Source: Nereocystis luetkeana (taxonomy: Eukaryota > Sar > Phaeophyceae > Laminariales > Laminariaceae). Taken from it: a stretch of DNA of 64,000 nt. The translations under genes were made by a program, and so were the position numbers. The stretch is from contig JARUPZ010000026.1 in the NCBI GenBank assembly GCA_031213475.1, positions 8,615,824 through 8,679,823 of the forward strand, read 5' to 3'. Shown piece after piece: positions 2,955-63,042 of the stretch. Every line of letters begins with the position of its first letter. Within the stretch, counting starts at the first letter, position 1. The notes beneath the pieces were generated by a model, which did no database searches, was not told the DNA's origin, and was given only the letters and a program-made list of their open reading frames with translations.

Positions 2955-3345
2955 CCAGTTTTACGGGGTGTTGGAGGACTCGTACCGGCACCTGGTATCG
3001 GGGGGCTCTTTGCGGAGTTTGGAGAACTCGTGCCGGCACTTTGTGTGGGCAGGCTCTGACCAGGCGTTGGAGGAGTCGGACCGGCACCTACCTGCTGTCG
3101 GGGGGCTCTTATTTTTTAGAACCGCAGTCCTGTTCTGGGGACAAACCACTCAAATTTCAAGTAGTTTTGTCCCCAAACGGGACTGCGGTTCTAAAGGGGT
3201 TATGACCGGGTCTTGGGGGACAACCGGCACCACCTGGTGTTGGGGGACTCTTACCGGTTTTTGGAGGACTCTTACCGGCACCTGGTGTCAGGGGACTCGC
3301 ACCTAGTTTTGGAGGACTCGTATCGGGTTTGGGGGGATGCTGGCA
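2955..3345 (+). repeat. Degenerate 47-bp minisatellite
   Basis: About six imperfect units of 46-48 bp start near 2969, 3016, 3064, 3209, 3252 and 3300. Each has a core like TTGGAGGACTCGTACCGGCA followed by a G-run. The array is interrupted between the third and fourth units by a foldback element (3113-3199). Open frames across it (2909-3205, 2968-3306) simply follow the repeat. Confidence 0.7.
3113..3199. mobile_element. TTAA-type foldback MITE, copy a
   Basis: An 87-bp near-perfect palindrome. The arms carry TTTAGAACCGCAGTCC and its inverse, then GGGGACAAACCACT facing AGTAGTTTTGTCCCC around an AT-rich centre. It is flanked by TTAT at 3109-3112 and 3200-3203, a plausible 4-bp target duplication. 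Sister copies at 62241-62328 and 62385-62473 are flanked by TTAA. TTAA targets and termini starting CCC are typical of piggyBac-superfamily non-autonomous elements. No transposase is in the window. Confidence 0.75.
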
Positions 3346-3604: not shown

Positions 3605-5254
3605 AGACCTATCTATGCCAATGGTACAGCGAAGTAAGTTGCAAAAAAAAGTTTGAATTTCAAAGATACCCGCCAAAAAAAATCAGAACACACGCTTCCT
3701 ATGAGCCTCGTTAAAATACAAAAATGTTCCTAACCTGTGCCAATGGAAACGCGAAGTTCAAAAGTATTTTTTCAAATATATCGCTTTAAAAAAACAGCCG
3801 AAAAAATTCTCGTACCGCCGCTGTGGGGGAAAAAGAGAAAAATGTTTGATTTTTTCTTTTTTTTTCCCCAACGGCTGCAGGCGGCGCAATTTGTGTGTTT
3901 TCTGGTCGCAAATTGTCAACACGGTGATCGAAACTAGCTCGTGCGACGACCGACGCTCGATCTCGACATAGACTCAGCCCACGGCCAATCCACTCGGTAT
4001 CTGGCAAGCCCAACGAATCTAGATGACGGCCTCGAAGATATCAGGTGTATCCATGGTCTAGGGGGCGAGAGCTTGCCGGCGGCGTCCTACGGTATCCTCC
4101 CAAACCTGAAACAAAGCCTATTTTTTGCCATTCGAGACGGATGGAGAAGTTTTGTCTTCTGTTTTGTGCAAACCAGCGGCCAAATGTGTTTTTATCACAC
4201 GCCTGGTCAGCTCCCCCCACATGACACCGGCCATGGTGTGAAGACGGTGACCCTAGGGTGGGTCGGAGTCCCTAACGAGCGCACTCCGTTTAAAATTCAT
4301 GACACAATCGTTGGTTATGTTGGTGGATGTCTGTCGAGGACTCGGAATCTCGCCGCTTCGAAACAAAGATCGGCCTGAGTTTTTCTCAAGCCGATGTTGC
4401 CCCAACAACGGCCCCAGATTTTATTTTTTTCGGGCTTTTCCAAAAGTTAGGAACTTTGGTTTTTTTTTAGGTGGCCCATAGGAGGCGTGTTCTGATTTGT
4501 TTTGGCGGGTATCTTTGAATTTCAAACTTTGTATTGCAACTTCGCTGTACCATTGGCATAGGTCTGTAAAAAAGCAAATCTTCGGCTTGAGAAAAACTCA
4601 GGCCGATCTTTTGTTCGAAGCGGCGAGATTCCGAGTCCTCGACAGACATCGATCAACAAACCAACGATTGCGTCATGAATTCTGAACGGAGTGCGCTCGT
4701 TACGGACTCCGACCCACCCTAGGGTCACCGTCTTCACACCATGGCCGGTGTCATGTGGCGGGAGCTGACCAGGCGTGTGATAAAACACATTTGGCCGCTG
4801 GTTTGCACAAAACAGAAGACAAAACTTCTCCATCCGTCTCGAATGGCAAAAAATAGACTTTTTTTCAGGTTTGGGAGGATACCGTAGGACGCCGCCGGCA
4901 AGCTCTCGCCCCCTAGACCATGGATCCACCTGATATCTTCGAGGCCGTCATCTAGATTCGTTGGGCTTGCCAGATACCGAGTGGGTTGGCCGTGGGCTGA
5001 GTCTATGTCGAGATCGAGCGTCGGTCGTCGCACGAGCTAGTTTCGATCACCGTGTTGACAATTTGCGACCAGTAAACACACAAATTGCTCCGCCTGCAGC
5101 CGTTGGGGGAAAAAAAAAAGAAAAAATCAAACATTTTCTCTTTTTCCCCCACAGCGGCGGTGGTACGAGAATTTTTTCGGCTGTTTTTTTTAAACGATAT
5201 ATTTCAAAAAATACTTTTGAACTTCGCGTTTCCATTGGCATACTATATAGGTCT
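3605..5254. repeat. 1.65-kb inverted-repeat complex
   Basis: Two modules each occur twice in opposite orientation. Module A at 3605-3727 reappears inverted at about 4440-4566. Module B at 3728-4398 reappears inverted at about 4577-5254. Both outer ends show AGACCTAT, then TGCCAATGG, then CGAAG, like terminal inverted repeats of roughly 30 bp. The arms match at well above 90% by eye. The open frames inside (3941-4378 plus, 4734-5033 minus) are mirror images of each other and resemble no family I know. A third, diverged copy of module B is at 32000-32690. Likely a pair of non-autonomous DNA elements inserted head to head; RNA through it would form a long hairpin. Confidence 0.8.
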
Positions 5255-14889: not shown

Positions 14890-17650
14890 ATTTAACTGGC
14901 CAGCGCCAAGGCGTCGGCCCTCGGCCCGTCCCTCGCTACGTAATAGTGATATATATCATACACGTCGTGAGACACAATGTATTGCTGTATATACGTACCA
15001 ACAACGCTATGCCGGTGCACTAAAAGGCGGTCGATATTGAGGGAATATATGCCGGTGCAGGTCTCGTGGCCGGCGCCAAAGCGTCGGCCTGCGGCCCGTC
15101 TCTCACTACCGATACATATCATACACGTTGCGACACACAATGTATTGCTGTATGTTCCAACGACGCTGTGCCGGGGCACTAAAGGGCGGTCGATGGTTGA
15201 GGGACTATTGTTGTTGTTGTTGTCGTTGTTGTTGTTGTTGTCACATTAACTCACAATACAATGCAGTCCGTGGTCGCAGGACAGGCTCCAATAACTCTGG
15301 AGTGGAAGAAATACCTCGGTAGCAAGACAGAGGCGAAAAACAAAACAAGCATACGCACTCCACTGCGGACACCAGGGAAGCTATGTGCCGGCGCAGGCCT
15401 CGTGGCCGGCGCGAACGCGTCGGTTCTTGGCCCGTCCCTCACTAACGATACATATAATAAACGTCGCGGTACACAACGATCGCGGTATGTAGTAACACCA
15501 CTGTGACGGCACACGAGAAGGCGGTCGGAGATGAGAGACTATGTGCCGGTGCACGCATTGGGGCCGGCGCCGACGCGACCATTGGCCTTGCCCCCCGCTT
15601 ACGATAGATATCATACGCGTCACGATGGGTATTGCGATATATATCATACGCGTCGTGAGACTCAACAATTTACTACTGTACGTACCAACAACGCTGTGCC
15701 GGTGCACTAAAAGGCGGTCGACTGTGAGGGAAGATTTGCCAGCGCAGGTCTCGTGGCCGACGCCGAAGCGTCGGCCGGTGGCTCGTCTCTCACCAACGAC
15801 ACATTTCATACACGTTGCGGGACACAGCGTATCGATGTATGTTCAACAACACCGTGCCGGTGCACTAAAGGCGGTCGATGGTGAGGTGACCATGTGCCGG
15901 CGCAGGTTTGGGGCCGGCGCCCACGCGTCGGCCCTTGACCCGTCCCTCACCATAGTTACAGATCATACACATCGCGATTCACAGTGAACGATGTACTTGG
16001 TATGTAGCAACACCGCCGTGCCGTCGCACTAGGAGGCGGTCGACGGTGAGGGACTGTGTGCCGGTGCACGACTTGGGGCCGGCGCCGATGCGCCGACCCT
16101 GCCCTTACTTTACCATACGTAACTTTCGCTTCGCGACGACTATTTCGACATGTATCATACACGTCGTGAGACACATGGTACTGCTGTACATACCAACAAC
16201 GCTGTGCCGGTGCACTAAAAGGCGGTCGATGACGAGGGAATATATATGCCGGCGCAGGTACTCGTGGCCGGCGCCAAAGCGTCGGCCCGTGGCCCATCCC
16301 TCACAAACGATGCATGCCATACTCGTGACGAGACACAAGGTACTGCTGTATGTTCCAACGACTCCGTGCCGGTGCACGAAACTGCGGTCAATGGTTGAGG
16401 GACGCGACGTGTCGGTGCAGGCCTCGTGGCCGGCGCCAACGCGTCGGCCCTTGGCCCGTTCCTCACTAACATTATATATCACACACGTCACGGTACACAA
16501 TGAACGAAGCTTGGGACAACGCCGATGTGCCGGCGCACTAGAAGGCAGTTGGTGGTGAGGGACTATGTGCCGGTGCACGGCTTGGGGCCGGCGCCGATGC
16601 GCCGCACTCTGGCCTTGCCCCTCATTAACGATAGTGATCACACTCGTCGCGTCGAGTAGTGATATACTGGGTATACCCTAGACGTTACTATACACAGTGT
16701 CCCGCTGTACGTATCAACAACGCTGTGCCAGTGCACCAAAAAGGCTGTCGATGGTGAGGGAATATGTGCCGGTGCAGGTCTCGTGGCCGGCACCAACGCG
16801 TCGGCCCGTGGCCCGTCCCTCACCAGCGATACATATCATACGCGTTGCGATACACAACGTACTGCTGTGCCATACGTTCCAACGACGCTGTGACAATGCA
16901 AAACAACAGGCGGTCAATGGTTGGGAGACTACTGTATGTGCCTGCGCAGGCCTCGTGGCCGGCGCCAACGCGTCGGCCCTCCGCCCGACCCCACTAACGA
17001 TACGTATCTTAAACATCGCGGTACACCGAGCGATGTATGTAGCCCTATCATACAGGTCGTGAGACTCAACAATTTACTACTGTACGTACCAACAACGCTG
17101 TACCGGTGCACTAAAAAACGGTCGATGGTGAGGGGATATTTGTCGGCGCAGGTCTCGTGGCCGACCCCAAAACGTCGGCCTGTGCCCCGTCTCCCACTAA
17201 CGATACATATCATACACGTGGGGGGACACGATGTACTGCCGTATGTTCCAACGACGCTGTGCCAATGCACAAAAATGCGGTTGATGGCGAGGGACTATGT
17301 GCCGGCGCAGGCCTCGTGGCCGGCGCCAATCCGTCGGCCCTTGACCCGTCCCTCACTAACGGTACAGATCATACACGCCGCGGTACACAACGAACGGTGT
17401 ATATAACAGCACCGCTGTGCCGGTGCACTAGAAGGCGGTAAATGGCGAGGGACTATGTGCCAGTGCACGGCTTCGGGGCGGCGCCGATGCGCCGACCCTT
17501 GGCTTTGCCCCTCACTAATAACACTTATCATACGCGTCGCGATGAGTATAGCAATATATATATCATACGCGTCGCGAGACACAACGTACTGCTGTGCGTA
17601 CCAACAACGCTGTGCAGGTGCACCAAAAGGCGGTCGATGGTGTGGGGATA
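14890..17650 (+). repeat. Higher-order satellite array, left block
   Basis: About 15 monomers of 160-190 bp, each with a GGCCGGCGCC-like box, TCCCTCACTAACGATA, ACGTCGCG, a CAACGACGCTGTGCCGGTGCAC box and AGGCGGTCGATGGTGAGGG. Boxes start near 14900, 15071, 15411, 15571, 15751, 15910, 16077, 16267, 16428, 16586, 16786, 16957, 17157, 17318 and 17479. Monomers fall into three types in the order A-B-C, giving a trimer period of about 510-518 bp. A LINE tail interrupts it at 15209-15380 and the full LINE at 17651. Long open frames here are by-products of the repeat. Confidence 0.9.
15209..15380 (-). mobile_element. 5'-truncated LINE copy inside the satellite
   Basis: 172 bp matching the 3' end of the full LINE (17651-17815) at over 90%, with a (GTT)n tail (minus strand AAC) at 15209-15240. 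It is flanked by CTAT at 15205-15208 and 15381-15384, the likely target duplication. A 5' truncation with the 3' tail kept is the usual result of target-primed reverse transcription. Confidence 0.85.
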
Positions 17651-17664
17651 TTGTTGTTGTTGTT

Positions 17665-18127
17665 CTCACATTAACTCACAATTCAATGCAGTCCGTGGTC
17701 GCAGGACAGGCTCCAATAACTCTGGAGTGGAAGAAATACCTCAAGTAAAAACAGAGGCAAAAAACAAAAAACAAGCATACGCACTCCACCACTGCGGACA
17801 CCAGGGAAGCAAAAAAGGAGACTATTAATAGCAGACAAAAACCTAAAAAAAGAAGATGAAGCTAAGCAAAAGAAAAACAAAAACAAAACTAAAGCAGACG
17901 CAGATAGCAAAACGCAAAAAAAAAAAAAGGCAAAACGGACCATACTAACAAAGACACAAAGAGGTACAAACGGGAATGAAAGAAAAATGAACAAAAAGGG
18001 ACAAAAAAGCGATAATCACGGGCGGGGGGGAAAGAAAATACCAAAGGCAGGCACTGGAGCATACAGACACGCAAAGTTGCCCAGATGGCACCATGCTAGT
18101 TACTTGGGTCCCAAAGAAAGGAGTGCA
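17665..18127 (-). other. LINE 3' UTR
   Basis: Between the stop codon and the (AAC)n tail. The terminal 100 bp (17665-17760) is the part shared by all short LINE tails in the window, so it probably holds the RNA structure recognised by the reverse transcriptase. The plus strand is strongly A-rich at 17750-18020. Confidence 0.7.
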
Positions 18128-21100
18128 TCATGACGATGATGGCCATAACCAGGCTTCAGTCTGTTGGGCAGACCGCCTCCCCTCCCCCCCCCCGCCATTC
18201 CCCCTCGTCCCCCTTTCGCCCCCCCCCTCTTCCCTGCCATTATGCACACTCGCGTTGGCGTCAACGGCTGTGGTCGTGGTTGCAGCTATTCTATGCCGTT
18301 CTGCCGATGCCTCCTTCTCATCTGTATGCCATTTCCGCATGAAGGCCTCCGCCCCTTCCTCGACCCGTCGGAACCATCTGCCGGCTTTCTGTGCTGCCTC
18401 GCGCCACCCTTCGCGCTTGATGCCGAACTCCTTGAGGTCCTCCTCAAGGTACCTCATCCAGTCCCACTCCTGTCCTCCGGAGTAACCCTTACCCCCAACC
18501 ATCTCCCCAAACATCACCCTCTTCGGCAGACGCTCCTCCCCCATTCGTGTCACAAAGCCCGCAAACAAGAGCCTACGTCTGCGTACCGTCGTCTCAACGC
18601 TTTCAGATGTTGTCCTGAGAAGCGCGCTAGCATAGGATAGAATGTGGTCTTCGCGCTTTCGTTTTCGCCACCCGATGCATCGGAGGTGCATCTTGTGGTG
18701 GACCTCCCGTAGCCTACCGTAATCAGTCTTGCTCGGGCTCCAAGTAACGCAACCGTAGAGCAACGTTTCGATCACCTCGGCTCTCAGCATTCGCACCTTC
18801 AGGCGTAGGCGCACACCCGGGCGGTCATAAATTTCCATCTTATACCGTCCGAAGCATGCCCATGCCCTCTGGAGTCGACGCGTTACCTCGACACTTCTGC
18901 CCGTCCAATCTGCGCTGATAGCCCCGCCCAGATACACAAACTCGGTCGTTTGTTTGTACACTTGGCCGGCGGCGGTGACGGTGAACGGCACGTTCCCCCC
19001 ATCTTTCGTTTGCAGACACATTATCTCCGTCTTGGCCTCCGAGACCGTCAGGCCGAAAGCGGCACATGCAGACACGATCACCGTCATCATCCTCTCCAGG
19101 CCGTTGGGTGATCTCGATACTATGCCTGCATCGTCGGCATAGAGCATAGCCCACAGTGTCTGGGCCTCTTTATCATTCCCCTGTCCGTCGGCGTGCCCGA
19201 CCCGTGCCTTCCCCCTCTTCTTTTTCTTCTTCTCCTGCTTTTGTTGCTGTTGCACCAAGCTGTCCGTGATGGCTTTATCAGCAGCGAATCGTTTCTCCGC
19301 CACACGCAGCACCGCTGTAAAAGACATGTTGAACAACAATGGCGCGAGCACACACCCTTGCCGTAGGCCCTGTTTCACGTCGAACATATCTGAGCACTCG
19401 CCGTCTTCCAGCCGCACGCATGCTCGCATGCCGTCGTGGAATTGGGGGATAACGGTGAGCATTCTAGGTGGCACCCCAAAGCGAGCCAAGACAGCCCACA
19501 GGAGGGTTCGGTCGACGGAGTCGTAGGCTTTGGTGAGGTCGACAAAGCACATGAAGAGCGGAGTGTCCTTCTTCCTTGCCAATTCCTGCATGCGTCGCAC
19601 CACGAACATCATGTCGACCGTCGATCGTTCGGGCCTAAAGCCACACTGCTCCTCCGGCAGGATGCCTTCCCGTTCGCAATAGTCGCTGAGTCGGCGCGCG
19701 ATGACTTTGAGGAGCACTTTGCCGGCATGCGCGACTAGGGAAATGCCACGATATTTACCACACTCCGTCCTGTCTTTCTTCTCGTGCAGCACCTTAATCG
19801 TTGCATCCTTATATTGCTGCGGCACGACCCCTCCCCTCCACACAGCGACGATAATCTCGTAGAAGCTTCCCAAGGTGTCCGAGTCTCCCTCGTCGGCCAG
19901 GACCTTCAGAAGTTCAGCTGGGAGACCATCAGGCCCAACCGCCTTGCGGTTCGCCATCGCCCTGATCGCGTCTTCCACCTCGTATCTAGACGGGACGTCG
20001 TCCAGCGGACTGCACGAGGGCCAGACCTTGAGCTCATCGACGATAGTCGGATCGAGGGTCGATGACCTTGTGTTTAGCAGCTTATGGAACCACCTTACCC
20101 ATCGTTCCCGGATGAGGCCTATGTCTCGTAGTAATCTACCTTCCTCGTCCCTGATGTACTGCGAATGGAAAGTCCTCTTTCCTTCCACATTCATCCCCTT
20201 AAGGTGCTTGTAGAACCCAAACTGATCACCTTCTTGGATACGCCTTTCGAGTTGACGGACGTATTCCTCGAAGAACTTCTGCACTCCGTCCGTCCTCGCA
20301 CGTTTGAGCTGTTTAGTGGCAATCTTCACAGCTTTTCGCAGATTTTTGTCTTCCGGGTTAGCACGTAGTTGCGTCCTCGCATTTTCCTTCTCCTGCCATC
20401 GTGAGTGCACCTCTGCTTTTACCTCTTCGGGCGTACACCAGCCCAGCGGCCCTTGTTTTCGACTGGTATTAGGTGCTAGTTTAGCAGCAGTCGACAGCAC
20501 GGTCTCCACTAGAGCAGTTGCCTTATCATCGACACTCCCAATTGTACCAGGCGGTGGGGGGGTAAGTTTGGTTATCTCCCTATTGAGGTCCGCTCGGAGA
20601 CCGGGGTCTGCCATCAACCGTTGTAGATTAATAGCTCGTTTTCCGCTGCCTGCTTTTACCCTCCGATTCGGCGCGAACCGACCCAAGAGGCGAATATTGC
20701 AGACCACGAGGTTGTGGTCAGATTCATGCCGATCCTCTGGGGGTTTCCGTACTGTCATGTTGCGGACCAGGCGTCCATCAACTTGCCGAGTAAGGATGTA
20801 GTCTAGCCTACACTGACCCTTCCCGGACTTTGGAGATTGGAAAGTGTACGACACTCCGCGAGTAGGTGTGGCAAAGAACGTGTTGAGGAGCGCAAGCCTG
20901 TTGTCATCTGCGAGGAGGAGTAGTCGCTCTCCGTTGTTGTTCAATTCATCGCGCCCGTATTTACCCATCACCTTACTGCCGGCACATCCGCTCTCTCGCT
21001 TGCCGGTGCGAGCATTTGCATCCAAGAGTACAAGTAGGTGATCCCCACTTGGGACCCCCGAGACGACTTTGTTCAGTTCGTTCCAGAATTGATCTTTCTC

Positions 21101-21907
21101 GCGAACGGGTGCATCCAGTATCGGCGCATAGCCGACAACAAAAGAAACAGCATTTGATTTGCCCTCAAGTTGAATGCGAACTTTCATCAGTCTGGCACTA
21201 ACGCACTCCACCTCGAGACCATCCTTGCCCACACCTGCCACAATAGACTCCCTGACAGCTAGTCCTACACCATGGGTGCCCTTCCTCTCGTATTTGCTGC
21301 CGTCTGCTCCAGAGCAAAACATCGTGTATCCAGCTGCTGTGAACGTACTATGCCCGTCTCGCCTAGTCTCCTGGAGACCTACGACATCGCATCCTAGTTC
21401 CTGGCATACCTTCATGATGACCTCGCTGTCGCCGATGCCATTTTTGCCGTTGAAGGCGAGTTTGCGAACATTGAACGTACCCACGACGAGTTCCCCAGCT
21501 CTGTACCTAGCCCTAGCATCTGAGCGTAACCTTCGAGCTTCTCTGCGACCTTTCCGACCTTGCCTCCTCTTCTTCCGTGCAGCGGGTTTTTTCTCCTCTA
21601 CCCTCCGCTTTTCCCAGGCGGTGGGTTTCTTCCGTTCCGTGTTTTTTCGCCCGGCCCGGTTCGTGCCGAGGTTCCGACGTGCTGGGGGCAGCAATCCCAA
21701 CGCGCCTCGACGCCCATCATCTCCTAGATGACGTCGAATGGGGTGCTTACTCACGTGGATCCTAGCCTCTCTTCTCCGTTCGCTACGAGTTCCACGCTTT
21801 CCGCGACGGTGATACGACACGGCTACCGCAGGCAATACTGCCGCGTGGAAAAAATCCGCGAGAAAAAATTCCGCCATATCGCTGGCCATCACCGCCGGCT
21901 CGACCAT
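18128..21907 (-). CDS. LINE endonuclease-reverse transcriptase
   Basis: An uninterrupted 1259-aa ORF. Residues 1-138 are basic and of low complexity. At about 140-405 lies an apurinic-endonuclease-like (EEP) domain with TFNVRKL, GLQETRR, VVGYAPI, LLDANARTG, SYTFQSP, RLDYIL and catalytic SDHN. At about 640-960 lies the reverse transcriptase, with [49 protein letters not shown] (motif A, near 788), LRQGCVLAPLLF and YADDAGIV (motif C, 923-926). The C-terminus (about 1120-1200) has the LPKRVMFGEM and WREAAQKAGRWFRR blocks common in RTE proteins. It nicks target DNA and copies its own RNA there. All catalytic residues I can check are present, so it may be active. No ORF1 is seen. The start is the first ATG of the frame; a downstream start is possible. 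Confidence 0.92.
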   Translation of the reverse strand: MVEPAVMASDMAEFFLADFFHAAVLPAVAVSYHRRGKRGTRSERRREARIHVSKHPIRRHLGDDGRRGALGLLPPARRNLGTNRAGRKNTERKKPTAWEKRRVEEKKPAARKKRRQGRKGRREARRLRSDARARYRAGELVVGTFNVRKLAFNGKNGIGDSEVIMKVCQELGCDVVGLQETRRDGHSTFTAAGYTMFCSGADGSKYERKGTHGVGLAVRESIVAGVGKDGLEVECVSARLMKVRIQLEGKSNAVSFVVGYAPILDAPVREKDQFWNELNKVVSGVPSGDHLLVLLDANARTGKRESGCAGSKVMGKYGRDELNNNGERLLLLADDNRLALLNTFFATPTRGVSYTFQSPKSGKGQCRLDYILTRQVDGRLVRNMTVRKPPEDRHESDHNLVVCNIRLLGRFAPNRRVKAGSGKRAINLQRLMADPGLRADLNREITKLTPPPPGTIGSVDDKATALVETVLSTAAKLAPNTSRKQGPLGWCTPEEVKAEVHSRWQEKENARTQLRANPEDKNLRKAVKIATKQLKRARTDGVQKFFEEYVRQLERRIQEGDQFGFYKHLKGMNVEGKRTFHSQYIRDEEGRLLRDIGLIRERWVRWFHKLLNTRSSTLDPTIVDELKVWPSCSPLDDVPSRYEVEDAIRAMANRKAVGPDGLPAELLKVLADEGDSDTLGSFYEIIVAVWRGGVVPQQYKDATIKVLHEKKDRTECGKYRGISLVAHAGKVLLKVIARRLSDYCEREGILPEEQCGFRPERSTVDMMFVVRRMQELARKKDTPLFMCFVDLTKAYDSVDRTLLWAVLARFGVPPRMLTVIPQFHDGMRACVRLEDGECSDMFDVKQGLRQGCVLAPLLFNMSFTAVLRVAEKRFAADKAITDSLVQQQQKQEKKKKKRGKARVGHADGQGNDKEAQTLWAMLYADDAGIVSRSPNGLERMMTVIVSACAAFGLTVSEAKTEIMCLQTKDGGNVPFTVTAAGQVYKQTTEFVYLGGAISADWTGRSVEVTRRLQRAWACFGRYKMEIYDRPGVRLRLKVRMLRAEVIETLLYGCVTWSPSKTDYGRLREVHHKMHLRCIGWRKRKREDHILSYASALLRTTSESVETTVRRRRLLFAGFVTRMGEERLPKRVMFGEMVGGKGYSGGQEWDWMRYLEEDLKEFGIKREGWREAAQKAGRWFRRVEEGAEAFMRKWHTDEKEASAERHRIAATTTTAVDANASVHNGREEGGGERGTRGNGGGGEGRRSAQQTEAWLWPSSS

Positions 21908-22030
21908 GCTCGAACCCTAGTTAGACGCGCAAGCAAGGTCAAGGCCGCGCTCCACTGGGAGCTCTAGCACGTGTTGGGGAAGCCGCAGGCCGGAGCTCCA
22001 CCCCGGCCGGGGAGCAGCCGAGGGAGGAAT

Positions 22031-23000
22031 TATGCCGGTGCAGGTCTCGCGGCCGGCGCCAACGCGCCGGCCTGGGGCCCGTCCCTCACTTACGATACAT
22101 ATCATACGCGTTGCGACACACAATATATAGCTGTATGTTCCAACGACGCTGTGCCGGTGCACTGAAAGGCGGTCGATGGTGAGGTACTCTGTGCCGGCGC
22201 AGGCCTCGTGACCGGCGCCAATGCGTCGGCCCTTGGCCCGACCCCCACTAACGATACGTATAATTTACGTCGCGGTGCACAATGAACGACGTATGTAAAT
22301 ACACCGCTGTGCCGGCGCACTAGAAGGCGGTCGGTGGTGAGGGACTATTTGCCGATGCACAGCTTGGGGGCGGCGCAGATGCGCCGACCTTTAACCCTGC
22401 CCCTCACTAGGGAGACTTGTCATACGCGTCGCGATGAGTATACCAATATATATCATACGCGTCGCGAAACAAAACGTACTATTGTACGTACCAACAACGC
22501 TGTGCCGGTGCACTAAAAGGCGGTCGATTGCGAGGGGATATATGCCGGTGCAGGTCTCGCGGCCGGCGCCAACGCGCCGGCCTGGGGCCCGTCCCTCACT
22601 TACGATGCATATCATACGCGTTGCGACACAATGTATAGCTGTATGTTCCAACGACGCTGTGCCGGGGCACTGAAAGGCGGTCGATGGTGAGGTACTATCT
22701 GCCGACGCAGGCCTCGTGGCCGGTGCCAATGCGTCGGCCCTTGGCCCGTCCCCCACTGACGATACGTACGACAAACGTCGCGGTACACAATGAACGACGT
22801 ATGTAAATACACCGCTGTGCCGGCGCACTAGGAGACGGTCGGTGGTGAGGGACTATGTGCCGATGCACGGCTTGGGGGCGGCGCCGATTCGCCGACCTTT
22901 AACCCTGCCCCTCACTAACGATGCTTAACATACGCGTCGCGACGCAAAACAACAAGGCCGTGCCGGTGCACTGTAAGGCAGTCGATAGTGGCGGAGTATG
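22031..23000 (+). repeat. Higher-order satellite array, right block
   Basis: Six more monomers (boxes near 22050, 22210, 22370, 22561, 22720 and 22877) in the order A-B-C-A-B-C, with a 511-bp trimer period. It continues the left array beyond the LINE. Monomers here have GCGCCGGCC or GGGCGGCGC variants, so this block differs slightly from the left one. Confidence 0.9.
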
Positions 23001-23330
23001 CGCCAGTCCACGTCTCGTGACCAGCGCACTAGCTTGCAGCCGAGATTGAGCGGAATGCAGGCAGGCGCATGCCTCAACCCCCTCCTACTAGCGACGTACC
23101 AAAGACACAGGCGCGTGTCGCCCCAAGCAGAGCTCTCGGCCGGTGCACGAGATACGCGGTGCGGAGCACCAGATAGCGTATGCGGTTGATAGGAAGATGC
23201 CGGCGCACGTCAACCACCGCTGCTATAAACAGCGCTGGCGCGTACCAATGGTGTGCCGGCGCACATCCGCACGGGGACAATCACGCCCCACCCTCGTCCA
23301 GGCCGGCGCATGGATATTGCTCACGGTCGC
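23001..23330 (+). repeat. Degenerate satellite edge
   Basis: Further GCCGGTGCAC and GCCGGCGCAC boxes recur at irregular spacing (near 23141, 23200, 23260 and 23302) without recognisable full monomers. This looks like the decayed edge of the array leading into the gag-like region. Confidence 0.5.
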
Positions 23331-45956: not shown

Positions 45957-46640
45957 GGGGACTATCGGTGGTGCAACCAGAGATCGGTGAGGCCTGCTGC
46001 ATCGAAAACGGTCAAAATGACGGTCATCATCTTCGCAAGGCCTTCCGCTGACGTGGAACCAATGTCCTCATTATTCGCGTACATCATACCCCATGCTGCC
46101 CTCAGTACGCAAGCTGGTGGGCCAACCTTCGCTCCGTCCTCGCCGAGGTCCTCCTCGAGGTGAACTAAGCCCCAGAAAATATATGGGTTTTCACTGAAGC
46201 GTACCTGCACGGCGTGTATCACAGCAGCGTAGAAGACATTGAACAGAAATGACGACAAGAGACATCCTTGCCGCAGCAGGTGACTTACGTCGAACCATCC
46301 CGAGTGCTCTCGCCGTCACCCGTATGCACGCGAGCTCGCATGCCTTCGTGAAACTGGCGGAAAACGGGGAGCATCTTGTCTGGTACGCCCAAGCGTGCGA
46401 GAACCACCCACAGCAGCCCGCGGTCGACGGAGTCATACGCTTTCTGTAGGTCGATAAAGCACATGTACAAAGGGATTTTTCTACCTCGTCCGAGTTTTTG
46501 CAGTCGGCGCACGACGAACAGCATGTCGACCGTTGACCGTGCTGGGCGAAAGCCGCACTGTTCCTCGGGGAGTACCCCTTTAGCCTCGCAGTAGTTACTG
46601 AGGCGGGACGCGACCAGTTTCAGCAATGTTTTCCCTGAAT
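45957..46640 (-). mobile_element. LINE fragment (RT region)
   Basis: Minus-strand RT fragment related to the intact [44 protein letters not shown] and [20 protein letters not shown] (46626-46290) are followed by a YANNEDIG segment near 46070, where motif C has changed from YADD. At least one frameshift separates the two blocks, near 46290. Its left edge coincides with the right edge of YR fragment 3. It is more distant from the 18-22 kb LINE than is the 49-51 kb copy. Confidence 0.8.
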
Positions 46641-48879: not shown

Positions 48880-51290
48880 GAAAAACAATAAAAAGAAGCA
48901 TGAAAGGAGGTGGGGCGAGCCTCACAACGGCTGGCAAGGAAAGCAGCACGTAAGGCTCGAAGGAGGCATCTATGTCGGTAGCGGCCTACATTATGCGTAC
49001 CCTGGATGTAAAGGGGAAGGACGGGTACGGATAAGAGGAAGACGACAAAGCAAAGCCATAAAAAAGGCAGAAAGCAAAAACCGAGAAATAACATACAGAC
49101 ACATAAATAGGGGCAAACGAGGAAAACGGAAAGAGGGAAACAAAGATTAAAGGGAACTGAAGGAAAGGACACAAAGGGACAAAAGGGGCAAAACGGGGCA
49201 AACCGGGGCGGGGGAGATATACTAGACGAAAGGAAGGCACTGCTACATGCAGGCAAGCAAGCTGCCCGGGTGGCACCTTGCTAGTTACTCCTGTCCCGAA
49301 GAAGAGAGCGCATCGTGACGATGACGGCCCTAACCAGTCGTCCGTCTGTTGGGCAGACCACCCCCCCCCCTCCTTCTCACTCCCCCTTTAGTCCGCATTT
49401 CGCCCCCCCCGTCTTCCTTGCCCTCCTGCGCACGTGCTTTCGATTCAACGATCGTAGTCGCGATTGCAGCCATCTTGTGCCGTTCTACCGATGCCTCCTT
49501 CTCATCAGTATGTGTGTTTTGCATGCAGACCTCCGCCCCTTCCTCAACCTGTTGGGGCCATCTGTCGGCTTTCTGTGCTGCCTCGCGCCAACTTTCGAGC
49601 TTGACGCCGATTTCCTTGAGGTCTTCCTTAAGGTGCCTTATCCAGTCCAACTTATCTTCTCATGAGTAGCCCTTACCCCCAACCATCTCCCCAAACATCA
49701 CCCTCTTCGGTAGACGCTCTTCTCTCATGCGCGTCACATAATCCGCAAACAATAGTTTACATCTGTGCCCCATCGTCTCTACGCCCTCGGAGGTTGTCCG
49801 GAGAAGCGGGTTGGGATAGGATATAATGTGGTCTTCGCGTATTTGTTTTCGCCAGCCGAGGCATCGGAGGAACACCTTGTGGCGGACCTCCCGTAGTCTG
49901 CCGCCATCCACCTTACTCGGGGTATAATAAATAGCGCATATTTAGAGCAACATTTCGATCACCTCGGCTCTCGGCATCCGCATCTTCAGGCGTAGGCGCA
50001 CACCCGGGCCGTCATAGAAATTCATCATATACCGCCCGAAGCACGCCAATGCCCTCTGGAGTCGACGCGTCACCTCGATACTTCTGTTCGTCGAACACTC
50101 GCTAATAGCCCCGCCCAAGCACACAAAACCGACTGTTTGTTTGTACAATTGGCCTGCTGCTTTTACGGTGTGGGGCACGCTCTCCCTATCTTTCGTTTGC
50201 AGTTACATTATCTCCGTCTTGGCGGCCGCGACCGTCAGGAGGAACGCGGCGCATGCAGACACGGTCACCGTCGTCATCCTCTCCAGGCCGTTAGGTGAAC
50301 GCGATACAATGCTCGCATCGTCAACATACAGCATTGACCACGATGTCTGGGTCTCTTTATCCTTCCCCTGACAGTCGGCTTGTCTGGCCCGTGCCTTCCC
50401 TCTCTTGTTTTCCCCCTTCTTATTCAAGCGTTGGAGTTGCACCAGGCTGTCCGTGATGGCTTCGTCAGGGGCGAGGCGTTCCTGCGTCACATGTAGTGCA
50501 CCCCTGTGAAAAACCTGTAGAACAGCAATGGCGCTGGAACACATCTTTGCTGAAGACCCTGCTCCACGGCGAACATATCTGAGCACTCCTTATCGTCCTG
50601 CCGCACACACACATGCTCGCATGCCGTCGTGGAACCGGCGGATACACGGCGAGGGATTCTAGGTGCCACGCCAAAGCGAGCCAAGACAGTCCACAGGAGG
50701 GTTCGGTCGACGGAATCCTAGGCTTGGGTGAGGTCGGCAAAGCACATAAACAGCGGGGTGTCCTTCTTCCTTGCCAGTTCCTGCAAGCGACGCTTCACGA
50801 ACATTATATAGACCGTCGAACATCCGAGCCTAAAGCTCCACTGCTATGCTTGCAGGAGCCCTTCCCGTTCGCAGTAGTCGCTGAGGCAGCGCGCGATGAG
50901 TTTGAGGAGTATTTTACCGGCGTACGCGACAAGGCAGATGCGACGATCGTTTCCGCAATCCGTCCTGTCTTTCTTCTTGTGCAGCACGTCAAGCGTTGCA
51001 TCCTTTCATTGCTGCGGCACTACCCGTCCTCTCCACACAGCGAGGTTGATCTCGTACAAACTTCTTAAGGTGTCCTACTAAAAGTCTCCTTCGTCGGCCA
51101 GGACCTTTAAACGTTCAGTTGGGAGACCATCAGGCCCAATCGCCTTTTGCAGTTCGCCATCGCCCGTATCACGTCTTCCACCTCGTATAGTACCTAGATG
51201 GGGAGTCATCAAGCGAACTGCACGAGGGCCAGACCTCGTCGACGATAGTTGGGTCGCGAGGGTCGAGGGTCGATAACTTTGTGTTTAGCA
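48880..51290 (-). mobile_element. Decayed paralogue of the RTE-like LINE
   Basis: Minus-strand copy aligning with 17830-20100 at about 75-80% identity. It covers the 3' UTR part, the C-terminal block (LPKRVMFGEMVGGKGYS near 49680), the RT (VDDASIVSRSPNGLERM near 50290, in place of YADD) and part of the palm upstream of it. It has several frameshifts and stops (frames 49330-49650, 49660-49911, 49942-50178, 50203-50586), and the endonuclease half is missing (5' truncated near 51290). Confidence 0.88.
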
Positions 51291-52520
51291 GCTTATTGAA
51301 CCCCCTCAACCTGCCCGCCTATTATTTAAAATAGTGGCTAACGACTCCTTAATTTGAAAGTTCATGTGGCAACATCAATTGCCCGGGTGTGAACGTCAAT
51401 ATGACAACATCAGTCGTCCTAGTAATAGCATCGAATAGCAGTCAGAATACCTACGTGTCTTCCATCGAAAGAATGGCCAAAAATGAATTGTTTGAAACTT
51501 TATATCTCGGAAACAAATGGTGCTATTATATCAACTATCTACATATGAATGACGAAGTATTATTGCGACAAGTATGAAGCACGCGTATACGTCGGGCTTG
51601 CTTCTGACTTTTGACGTTGATTTCAAATTATGCCCGAGGAAACATATTGCACTTACAAAAGTAGATAGACCTTCGCCCACTTAATCAAAACGCAGAACTT
51701 CATTCGCCGCTTTCCGGCGTCGTCACAGCCTCACAGCTCAAGAATTAAAGTACGCGCAAGAGCGTGGCAAGCAAGTGAGTCAACGCGTAACCATGTTTAT
51801 GCGATTGGTGGTGGAAATAACATCACGCAATTCAAGATTGACTGATGTGGCGCTTAGTGATGCATTCAAATGCAACCCGTCCCGCCCTCGCCGGCTCGCG
51901 CATACACGTACACTTTAGTTGCCGCTATAATTGACCTTCGATTTGAAGGTCGAGCAAAGGTCTATATATCGTCAGCTACCTTTATTTTCGGAAAGTGACT
52001 GGCCTCGAATACACGATTAAATTTACAGTGAAATAAAAGGCAGTTAATATATTAATGGTGTTGCATAAAACCTTCTTGGTGTATGTATACCTCGTGGCGT
52101 AGCGCCTGGTCAAGCGCGTAGGTACATCGCGCCAGTCACGGTATGACCTGGATGTATTGTCCTCGTACGGAGCTCAAGAACTTCTAGAGGCAGAGTGATA
52201 AATCAGTTCATTTTGGTCCTACCGATGCTACTGACCTTTTACATAATAGGTAGATAACTTTTGCCGGCAGGGTGGTAAATCAATTTATTATTGTCCTCCT
52301 GGTGCTGTAAAGGTTGCCATTACAACAGTACATACCGGTATACAGCAAGCAGTAGCACTATTAATAGTGCCAATACTACTAGAAACTATTATTGTGGCAC
52401 TTTTTGGGCACTCGGTGCGCCCTACCTTGTTTCGTGCTTGACAACAGCAAGCAGTATGTAGGGGGGGAATATTTGTACGAGCAGTATACACACGGGCCAA
52501 GTATTCGTACGTATCTACCC
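51291..52520. other. Anonymous stretch
   Basis: No gene is recognised. A short hairpin (GACCTTCGATTTGAAGGTC, near 51943-51961) is the only structure seen. The open frame 51389-51577 has no motif. Confidence 0.4.
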
Positions 52521-52583
52521 TGCGACCACGGACTGCATTTTATTATCGTTGATGTGAACAACAACAACGACAACAACAACAAC
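52521..52583 (+). mobile_element. Short LINE 3' tail
   Basis: TGCGACCACGGACTGCATT, then sequence like GTTGATGTG, then (AAC)n ending at 52583. It matches the last about 45 bp of the LINE at 17651 in plus orientation. An extreme 5' truncation. Confidence 0.7.
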
Positions 52584-55338: not shown

Positions 55339-55395
55339 TGCGACCACGGACTGCATTGTATTGTGGCGATGAGTTAATGTGATACCAACAACAAT
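55339..55395 (+). mobile_element. Short LINE 3' tail
   Basis: TGCGACCACGGACTGCATTG, then GAGTTAATGTGA and CAACAACAA. It matches the LINE 3' terminus in plus orientation. TAT-containing sequence flanks both sides. Confidence 0.65.
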
Positions 55396-61713: not shown

Positions 61714-61739
61714 AGGGTTAGGGTTAGGGTTAGGGTTAG
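61714..61739 (+). repeat. Interstitial telomere-type repeat
   Basis: Four perfect TTAGGG units, then degenerate G-rich continuation (GGGGTTGGGTTGGG). This is too short for a chromosome end. Such tracts mark repaired breaks or old telomere captures. Confidence 0.85.
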
Positions 61740-62954: not shown

Positions 62955-63042
62955 GGTTGTTCTCACATTAACTCACAATACATTGCAGTCCATGGTCGCA
63001 GGACAGGCTCCAACAACTCTGGAGTGGAAAAAATACCTCGGT
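62955..63042 (-). mobile_element. 5'-truncated LINE tail
   Basis: 88 bp matching 17655-17745, with a very short (GTT) tail at the left. It ends at AAATACCTCGG on the right. Identity to the full LINE is about 93%. Confidence 0.8.

What the first reader, a model, noticed from the sequence alone, without database searches (positions are those of the whole stretch)
15201..22035. Two LINE insertions at the same point of the satellite monomer
The short copy (15209-15380) lies in GGGACTAT^GTGCCGG and the full LINE (17651-22030) in GGGGATAT^ATGCCGG, the same few bases of different monomer types (A/B and C/A junctions). With about 165 possible sites per monomer this is unlikely by chance and suggests that the endonuclease prefers this site, as known for other site-selective LINEs.
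Basis: partly seen in the sequence, partly recalled or inferred. Interest (0 to 1): 0.72.

Follow-up and report, generated by a model that had tools for sequence, protein, structure and literature searches.

The report
Mobile element reusing favoured insertion points
Two copies of a common self-copying DNA element did land at the same spot of a repeated sequence; the element is not dedicated to that repeat, but elsewhere in the genome it also reuses particular spots, so the coincidence probably reflects a real, moderate taste of its DNA-cutting enzyme.

Summary
Both insertions sit at the homologous monomer position on the same strand: GGGACTA^TGTGCC (15208-15380) and GGGGATA^TATGCC (17651-22030). 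A co-linear array on another contig carries the exact empty site of the full copy. They are separate events: different 5' ends, sequences and monomer types. The LINE is a high-copy, 5'-truncating element (2,599 3' ends) with endonuclease and reverse transcriptase domains. Nothing shows it to be satellite-specific: in the 40 regions scored no other satellite region carries its 3' end, and none of 87 other sampled flanks matches the window's satellite flank. Its general motif is weak (A before the tail in 54 of 86 distinct flanks). Chance agreement of two satellite insertions is 1.3% (uniform) to about 7% (rough motif). Better support comes from elsewhere: 29 junctions of this LINE follow one word of a dispersed repeat, 22 of 29 (20 of 27 without probable duplicates) at one base, well under one expected. 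A second family sharing its 3' end uses the same base; two further repeats were hit more than once at one base. Verdict: site preference supported, satellite specificity not; the satellite itself gives n=2.

The parts
17651..22030 (-). Near full-length LINE inserted in the satellite; 3' tail (CAA)n in its own sense, at 17651-17664
   Evidence: empty site in paralogous array L174
18128..21916 (-). Single open frame of 1,262 aa (stop to stop)
20714..21481 (-). Endonuclease domain (Exo_endo_phos, residues 146-401)
   Evidence: E 3.4e-9; no solved structure matched by sequence
18926..19780 (-). Reverse transcriptase domain (RVT_1, residues 713-997)
   Evidence: E 2.2e-32; L1 ORF2 chains are the best solved relatives of the protein, over residues 645-872
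15208..15380 (-). Short 5'-truncated copy of the same LINE family with a long (TTG)n tail
   Evidence: 129 of 141 aligned columns identical to the full copy
15205..15207 (+). Left copy of the 3-bp target duplication CTA (CTAT with the ambiguous T)
15381..15383 (+). Right copy of the target duplication CTA
14896..23000 (+). Satellite array (monomers roughly 155-210 bp, several types; limits approximate) interrupted by the two LINEs
   Evidence: about 39 such regions in the genome, counted by eye in the cut lists

Best explanation
The two insertions are independent target-primed reverse transcription events of one high-copy LINE family. Its endonuclease nicks preferentially after a pyrimidine-A step that is often followed by T-rich, TAT/GTATG-like sequence. 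The freed 3' end, often helped by one or two T or G bases that match the (CAA)n RNA tail, primes copying. The satellite monomer holds one of its better sites at GGGNNTA^TRTGCC, so two of two satellite hits fell there. Shown: both junctions, their independence, the weak general motif in the sample, and recurrent use of single bases in other repeats. Inferred: target-primed copying (from 5' truncation and the constant tailed 3' end) and that the endonuclease, and not chromatin or selection, sets the preference.
For: Homologous junctions and an exact empty site. Independence: 170 bp against 4,380 bp, 129 of 141 identity, different monomer types. 86 distinct 3' flanks of 95: A at -1 in 54, TA or CA in 46. 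Hot spot GTGCCTGTCGTATCTA^GTATGATG: 102 junctions of elements with this 3' end, 29 of them of this family, 22 at one base; 3,023 sites without a LINE inside the pattern; expected 0.2-0.6. 5' ends at the hot base: LINE position 96 (L168), 2,555 (L044), beyond 1 kb (L158, L159, L160, L166); within about 20 bp: 3,809 (L048) and full length (L123, L131). In 89 flanks, 7 pairs share a repeat up to both junctions, the satellite pair among them. Repeat (a): truncated and full copies at one base, flanks 92% alike. Satellite sites score in the top 47 and top 185 of 7,076 array positions with a motif trained without them.
Against: Only two satellite insertions are known. Many insertions do not fit the motif: with leave-one-out, 2 of 16 training sites score no better than random and 3 more reach only the top 12-20%; the hot spot itself scores only in the top 4.5%. 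The 16 sites were chosen and phased by hand. Stripping the (TTG)n tail biases the last base against G and T. Several equally good or better positions in the monomer carry no LINE. In repeat (b) one insertion lies apart from the shared bases (L069). At the hot spot 2 of 29 rows lack the YA step.
Confidence: 0.7

Rival explanations
1. Coincidence: the LINE inserts almost anywhere, and two satellite hits happened to agree.
For: P is 0.013-0.074 by model, noticed after the fact among many possible patterns; the satellite load is as expected by chance for an assumed 100-150 kb.
Against: The same LINE reuses single bases in repeat (c) far beyond chance and in repeats (a) and (b), so even insertion is wrong in general.
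Confidence: 0.22
2. One insertion, copied with its monomer by unequal exchange of the satellite, then shortened by deletion.
For: Both lie in one array with the same orientation and position.
Against: The LINE parts differ by about 8% while the best-matching copies elsewhere, picked for similarity, are 97-99% like the full one. The monomer types differ (by eye). The short copy has its own CTA duplication right at a truncation point, and the paralogous array has the empty site for the full copy.
Confidence: 0.03
3. The LINE is a dedicated satellite-targeting element, like R1, R2, TRAS or SART for their targets.
For: Two of two satellite hits at one point.
Against: 2,599 3' ends; none of 87 other sampled flanks matches the window's 1.5-kb satellite flank; no other LINE 3' end in the satellite regions scored; pattern one search finds only the short copy, and nothing.
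Confidence: 0.01
4. Preference set by chromatin or by breaks at these repeats, not by endonuclease sequence choice. This overlaps with the best explanation in all but the cause.
For: About 10 of the roughly 100 listed copies of repeat (c) carry 4-7 extra bases at CTA^GTATG (by eye), as if this point is often broken and rejoined.
Against: Reuse is precise to the base, and the YA step before the nick is kept in most mutated copies of the repeat.
Confidence: 0.15

Closest known systems
RTE-X LINEs and their non-autonomous partners in Ectocarpus (PMC12477816: section 5 part 1 and search passages read)
   Same: High-copy LINEs with recent copies, and another family sharing the LINE's 3' end; here a second family shares (TTG)nTTCTCACATTAACTC.
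Human L1 (apurinic-type endonuclease; target TTTT/AA recalled, from no call)
   Same: Endonuclease plus reverse transcriptase, 5' truncation, loose target preference; L1 ORF2 chains are the best solved relatives of the protein.
   Different: Tail is (CAA)n, target is YA^(G)TAT-like, target duplications are short (0-8 bp).
Sequence-specific LINEs (R1, TRAS, SART recalled; R2 and Utopia from the starts of the abstracts of PMC5035012 and PMC4640811 in the listing)
   Same: Reuse of one base in a multicopy target.
   Different: Here only about 1% of the copies use the favoured point of repeat (c) (29 against 2,599, counted with different words), and the satellite takes two.

Membership tests
LINE (non-LTR retrotransposon) with apurinic-type endonuclease | Exo_endo_phos-type endonuclease and reverse transcriptase in one protein | tested here: met
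   PF03372 at 146-401, PF00078 at 713-997 of 1,262 aa
LINE (non-LTR retrotransposon) with apurinic-type endonuclease | Frequent 5' truncation with a constant 3' end | tested here: met
   5' ends of 20 loci spread from LINE position 417 to full length; L034-L036/L040 and L037/L038 are duplicate groups and L034 is cut by its contig end; 2,599 3' ends against 172 first-look candidates for the 5' end
LINE (non-LTR retrotransposon) with apurinic-type endonuclease | Target-site duplications | tested here: inconclusive
   microhomology allowed: 5-8 bp in 7 of 49 rows, the rest 0-4 bp; the full window copy has no clear one
Sequence-specific LINE | Most copies at one target sequence | tested here: not met
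   86 distinct flanks of 95; 29 junctions at the commonest site found against 2,599 3' ends
RTE / RTE-X clade | Position in a reverse-transcriptase tree | not tested
L1-type target choice | TTTT/AA consensus at the nick (recalled) | tested here: not met
   A at -1 with T or C at -2; no T-run

The most novel reading that the evidence does not exclude
A dispersed apurinic-type LINE lineage part of the way towards site specificity: together with a second family that shares its 3' end it repeatedly uses one base of an abundant dispersed repeat (CTA^GTATG) and analogous points of other repeats, the satellite among them, through a recognisable 6-10 bp endonuclease preference.
Probability: 0.35. Interest if true: 0.55.

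Novelty: new member of a known kind. Interest (0 to 1): 0.4.

Why it matters
Repeats with thousands of copies act as a natural target-site assay: counting where a LINE enters near-identical sequence measures its preference without a laboratory. Here it turns a two-case curiosity in a satellite into a measurable preference, and it offers a LINE that is neither random nor site-specific, a useful intermediate for the question how site specificity evolves.

Tried and rejected
One search printed flanks before I noticed that genome-search loci on the minus strand are not turned; redone. One search placed the short copy's junction one base off; redone, and only one search is used for it. The output was cut in the middle, so the comparison was repeated in short form with tail-stripped flanks. 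A single strong motif for all sites failed. The idea that shared flanks are one insertion copied with its host repeat was tested for repeats (a) and (c) and rejected there (different 5' ends; flanks more diverged than the LINE copies). For the pair L054/L059 it remains untested. For L061/L068 the right flanks first looked unrelated; one search prints TACGTAGCTGCAA in one and TACGTAG followed by CTGCAA in the other, so by eye both lie in one repeat, one with about 65 bp of the target lost. The 102 junctions mix two families: of 20 loci that I picked from rows at the hot base on C1-C8, 5 were this LINE and 15 the second family. One search was meant as an upstream control: both of its 2 matches ended at the hot spot or beside it; it needs the word TTTCATAGAAT, while many copies read TTTCATAGATTG, so it is a weak control. 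The motif used 16 sites: 15 from the 20 non-satellite rows with overlaps of 3 or more, plus the nested case L049; I dropped L133, L123, L129, L141 and L145 and shifted several junctions by hand to the YA step. Rows dropped before counts: 9 of 95 flanks as duplicates, 6 of 95, 4 full-length pairs without a found 3' anchor, the duplicate loci L034, L036, L038, L040, the nested L049, the interrupted L024, and loci that run off their end. Of 101 rows listed, 40 were fetched. Searches found nothing (demanded a base that the short copy does not have). The listings of paper searches showed no report of this case; that is not proof that none is in print.

Full report
What is there. The window holds a satellite array (about 14896-23000) broken by two LINE insertions. 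The larger one, 17651-22030 on the minus strand, is near full length and has one open frame of 1,262 aa with an endonuclease and a reverse transcriptase domain. The smaller one, 15208-15380, is the 3' end of the same family, 129 of 141 aligned columns identical to the full copy.

The junctions. For the short copy the left flank ends GGGACTA and the right flank begins CTATGTGCC, a duplication of CTA or CTAT. For the full copy the flanks are GGGGATA and TATGCC. A co-linear array on contig C2 (L174) aligns straight through the joined flanks, so the empty site is known and there is no clear duplication. In the alignment of the array's pieces both points fall before TATRTGCC (by eye, because the automatic cutting broke pieces there).

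Independence. The copies differ in length and by about 8% in sequence. The copies fetched elsewhere, picked as the best matches, are 97-99% like the window's full LINE. The host monomer types differ. So this is unlikely to be one insertion copied with the array.

How likely by chance. With uniform insertion, two hits agree within two columns on one strand with P 0.013; weights from k-mers at 86 other insertions give 0.014-0.017. A two-sided motif gives 0.015, 0.024 or 0.074 depending on how steeply it is applied. With that motif, trained without the satellite, the full site ranks in the top 47 and the short site in the top 185 of 7,076 array positions on both strands. The motif rests on 16 sites that I chose and phased by hand, so these ranks are optimistic.

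Is the satellite a special target? No sign of it. The genome has 2,599 LINE 3' ends within 3 mismatches of a 45-base word. With a query spanning satellite and LINE, 40 regions were scored; only the window's array showed both parts, and the other listed LINE rows lie far from satellite rows (by eye; list cut). I count about 39 satellite regions by eye in the cut lists. If the satellite totals 100-150 kb, my assumption, 0.56-0.84 insertions are expected and P of two or more is 0.11-0.21. One other array, 2.6 kb fetched, has about ten homologous sites and no LINE match. Of 89 flanks compared, only the window's two satellite flanks match each other; none of the other 87 matches the satellite flank of the full copy.

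What the LINE prefers in general. I took 3' flanks of the best 30 matches, 40 exact 3' ends from contig C1 out of 101 listed and full-length copies: 95 flanks besides the satellite ones, 86 distinct in their last 16 bases. A stands before the tail in 54 of 86, and TA or CA in 46 of 86; nothing beyond is strong. Removing the TTG tail biases this base against G and T. Target duplications of 5-8 bp appear in 7 of 49 rows; the rest are shorter or absent.

Recurrent points. Among 89 flanks, 7 pairs share sequence up to within 15 bases of both junctions: the satellite pair; three pairs among L015, L123 and L131 in repeat (c); L055/L080 in repeat (a); L061/L068 in repeat (b); and L054/L059. In (a) one copy is truncated at LINE position 3,159 and the other is full length; the flanks are 92% alike, while each LINE copy is 98.6-99% like the window's LINE where compared. 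L061 ends at about 3,151 and L068 is full length; one search finds just these two with its exact words. The left flank of L054 matches the right flank of L061's copy (52 bp, 88%), so L054/L059 lie in the same repeat family as (b). L069 lies there too, at a different point. That repeat thus shows 2, 1 and 2 hits at three points.

The main hot spot. Four sampled copies (L015, L019, L123, L131) lie in one dispersed repeat (c) at or within about 20 bp of GTGCCTGTCGTATCTA^GTATGATG. A pattern search found 102 junctions of elements with this 3' end; restricted to this family, 29, 22 of them at the same base. Three rows have an identical tail, two of them on small contigs, and are probably assembly duplicates, leaving 20 of 27. 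The repeat has 3,023 matching sites without a LINE inside the pattern. Uniform insertion would give 0.2-0.6 such junctions (the number of target sites is assumed between 3,023 and 10,000). At the hot base copies end at LINE position 96 (L168), 2,555 (L044) or beyond 1 kb (L158, L159, L160, L166); nearby ones end at 3,809 (L048) or are full length (L123, L131, in variants of the repeat with extra bases). So these are several separate events; I did not test all 27. A second family sharing the 3' end TTCTCACATTAACTC but different further in uses the same base: 15 of 20 loci picked from rows at that base, with the repeat resuming after 100, 480 and 717 bp in three of the 15; in the other 12 no resumption was found in the kilobase fetched.

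Reading. The LINE is a dispersed element with a real but moderate choice of insertion point. What is shown is recurrent use of single bases. That the endonuclease makes the choice is an inference from the YA step before the nick, kept in most mutated copies of repeat (c), with 2 of 29 rows as exceptions. The satellite position is one of its better sites, which makes the observed coincidence unsurprising but leaves it unproved, because there are only two cases.

Known relatives. The endonuclease-reverse transcriptase layout and a partner family with the same 3' end recall RTE-X LINEs and RTEX-N1 of Ectocarpus as described in PMC12477816 (section 5, part 1, and search passages read). Membership was not tested.

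Noticed in passing
window 16062-17651 and 22026-23301, and L174: The satellite array on contig C2 is co-linear with the window's array and the match continues beyond it to 23301 at least, so the arrays may be dispersed copies of a larger unit, not local tandem growth.
   Followed up: partly
L154-L157, L161-L165, L167, L169-L173: A second family shares the 3' end (TTG)nTTCTCACATTAACTC with the window's LINE and then diverges; it uses the same base of repeat (c). L158-L160, L166 and L168 in the same batch are the window's LINE.
   Followed up: partly
listing, e.g. G000:C1:5895419-5895453: About 10 of the roughly 100 listed copies of repeat (c) carry 4-7 extra bases at CTA^GTATG, like footprints or failed insertions at the hot spot (by eye).
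   Followed up: no
window 49206-51306, 46229-46566, 62956-63039, 52519-52573, 55339-55394: Relatives and 3' fragments of the LINE elsewhere in the window, 74-94% identical.
   Followed up: no
L020/L049 (G000:C14:10438809-10445809): A LINE inserted into the endonuclease region of another copy of the same LINE, with about 300 bp of extra sequence beside it.
   Followed up: no
window 61714-61739: A short interstitial telomere-like run (AGGGTT)4.3.
   Followed up: no
L005, L006, L007, L011; L008, L009; L021, L026: Groups of loci with identical flanks, several on small contigs: probably assembly duplicates that would inflate copy counts.
   Followed up: no
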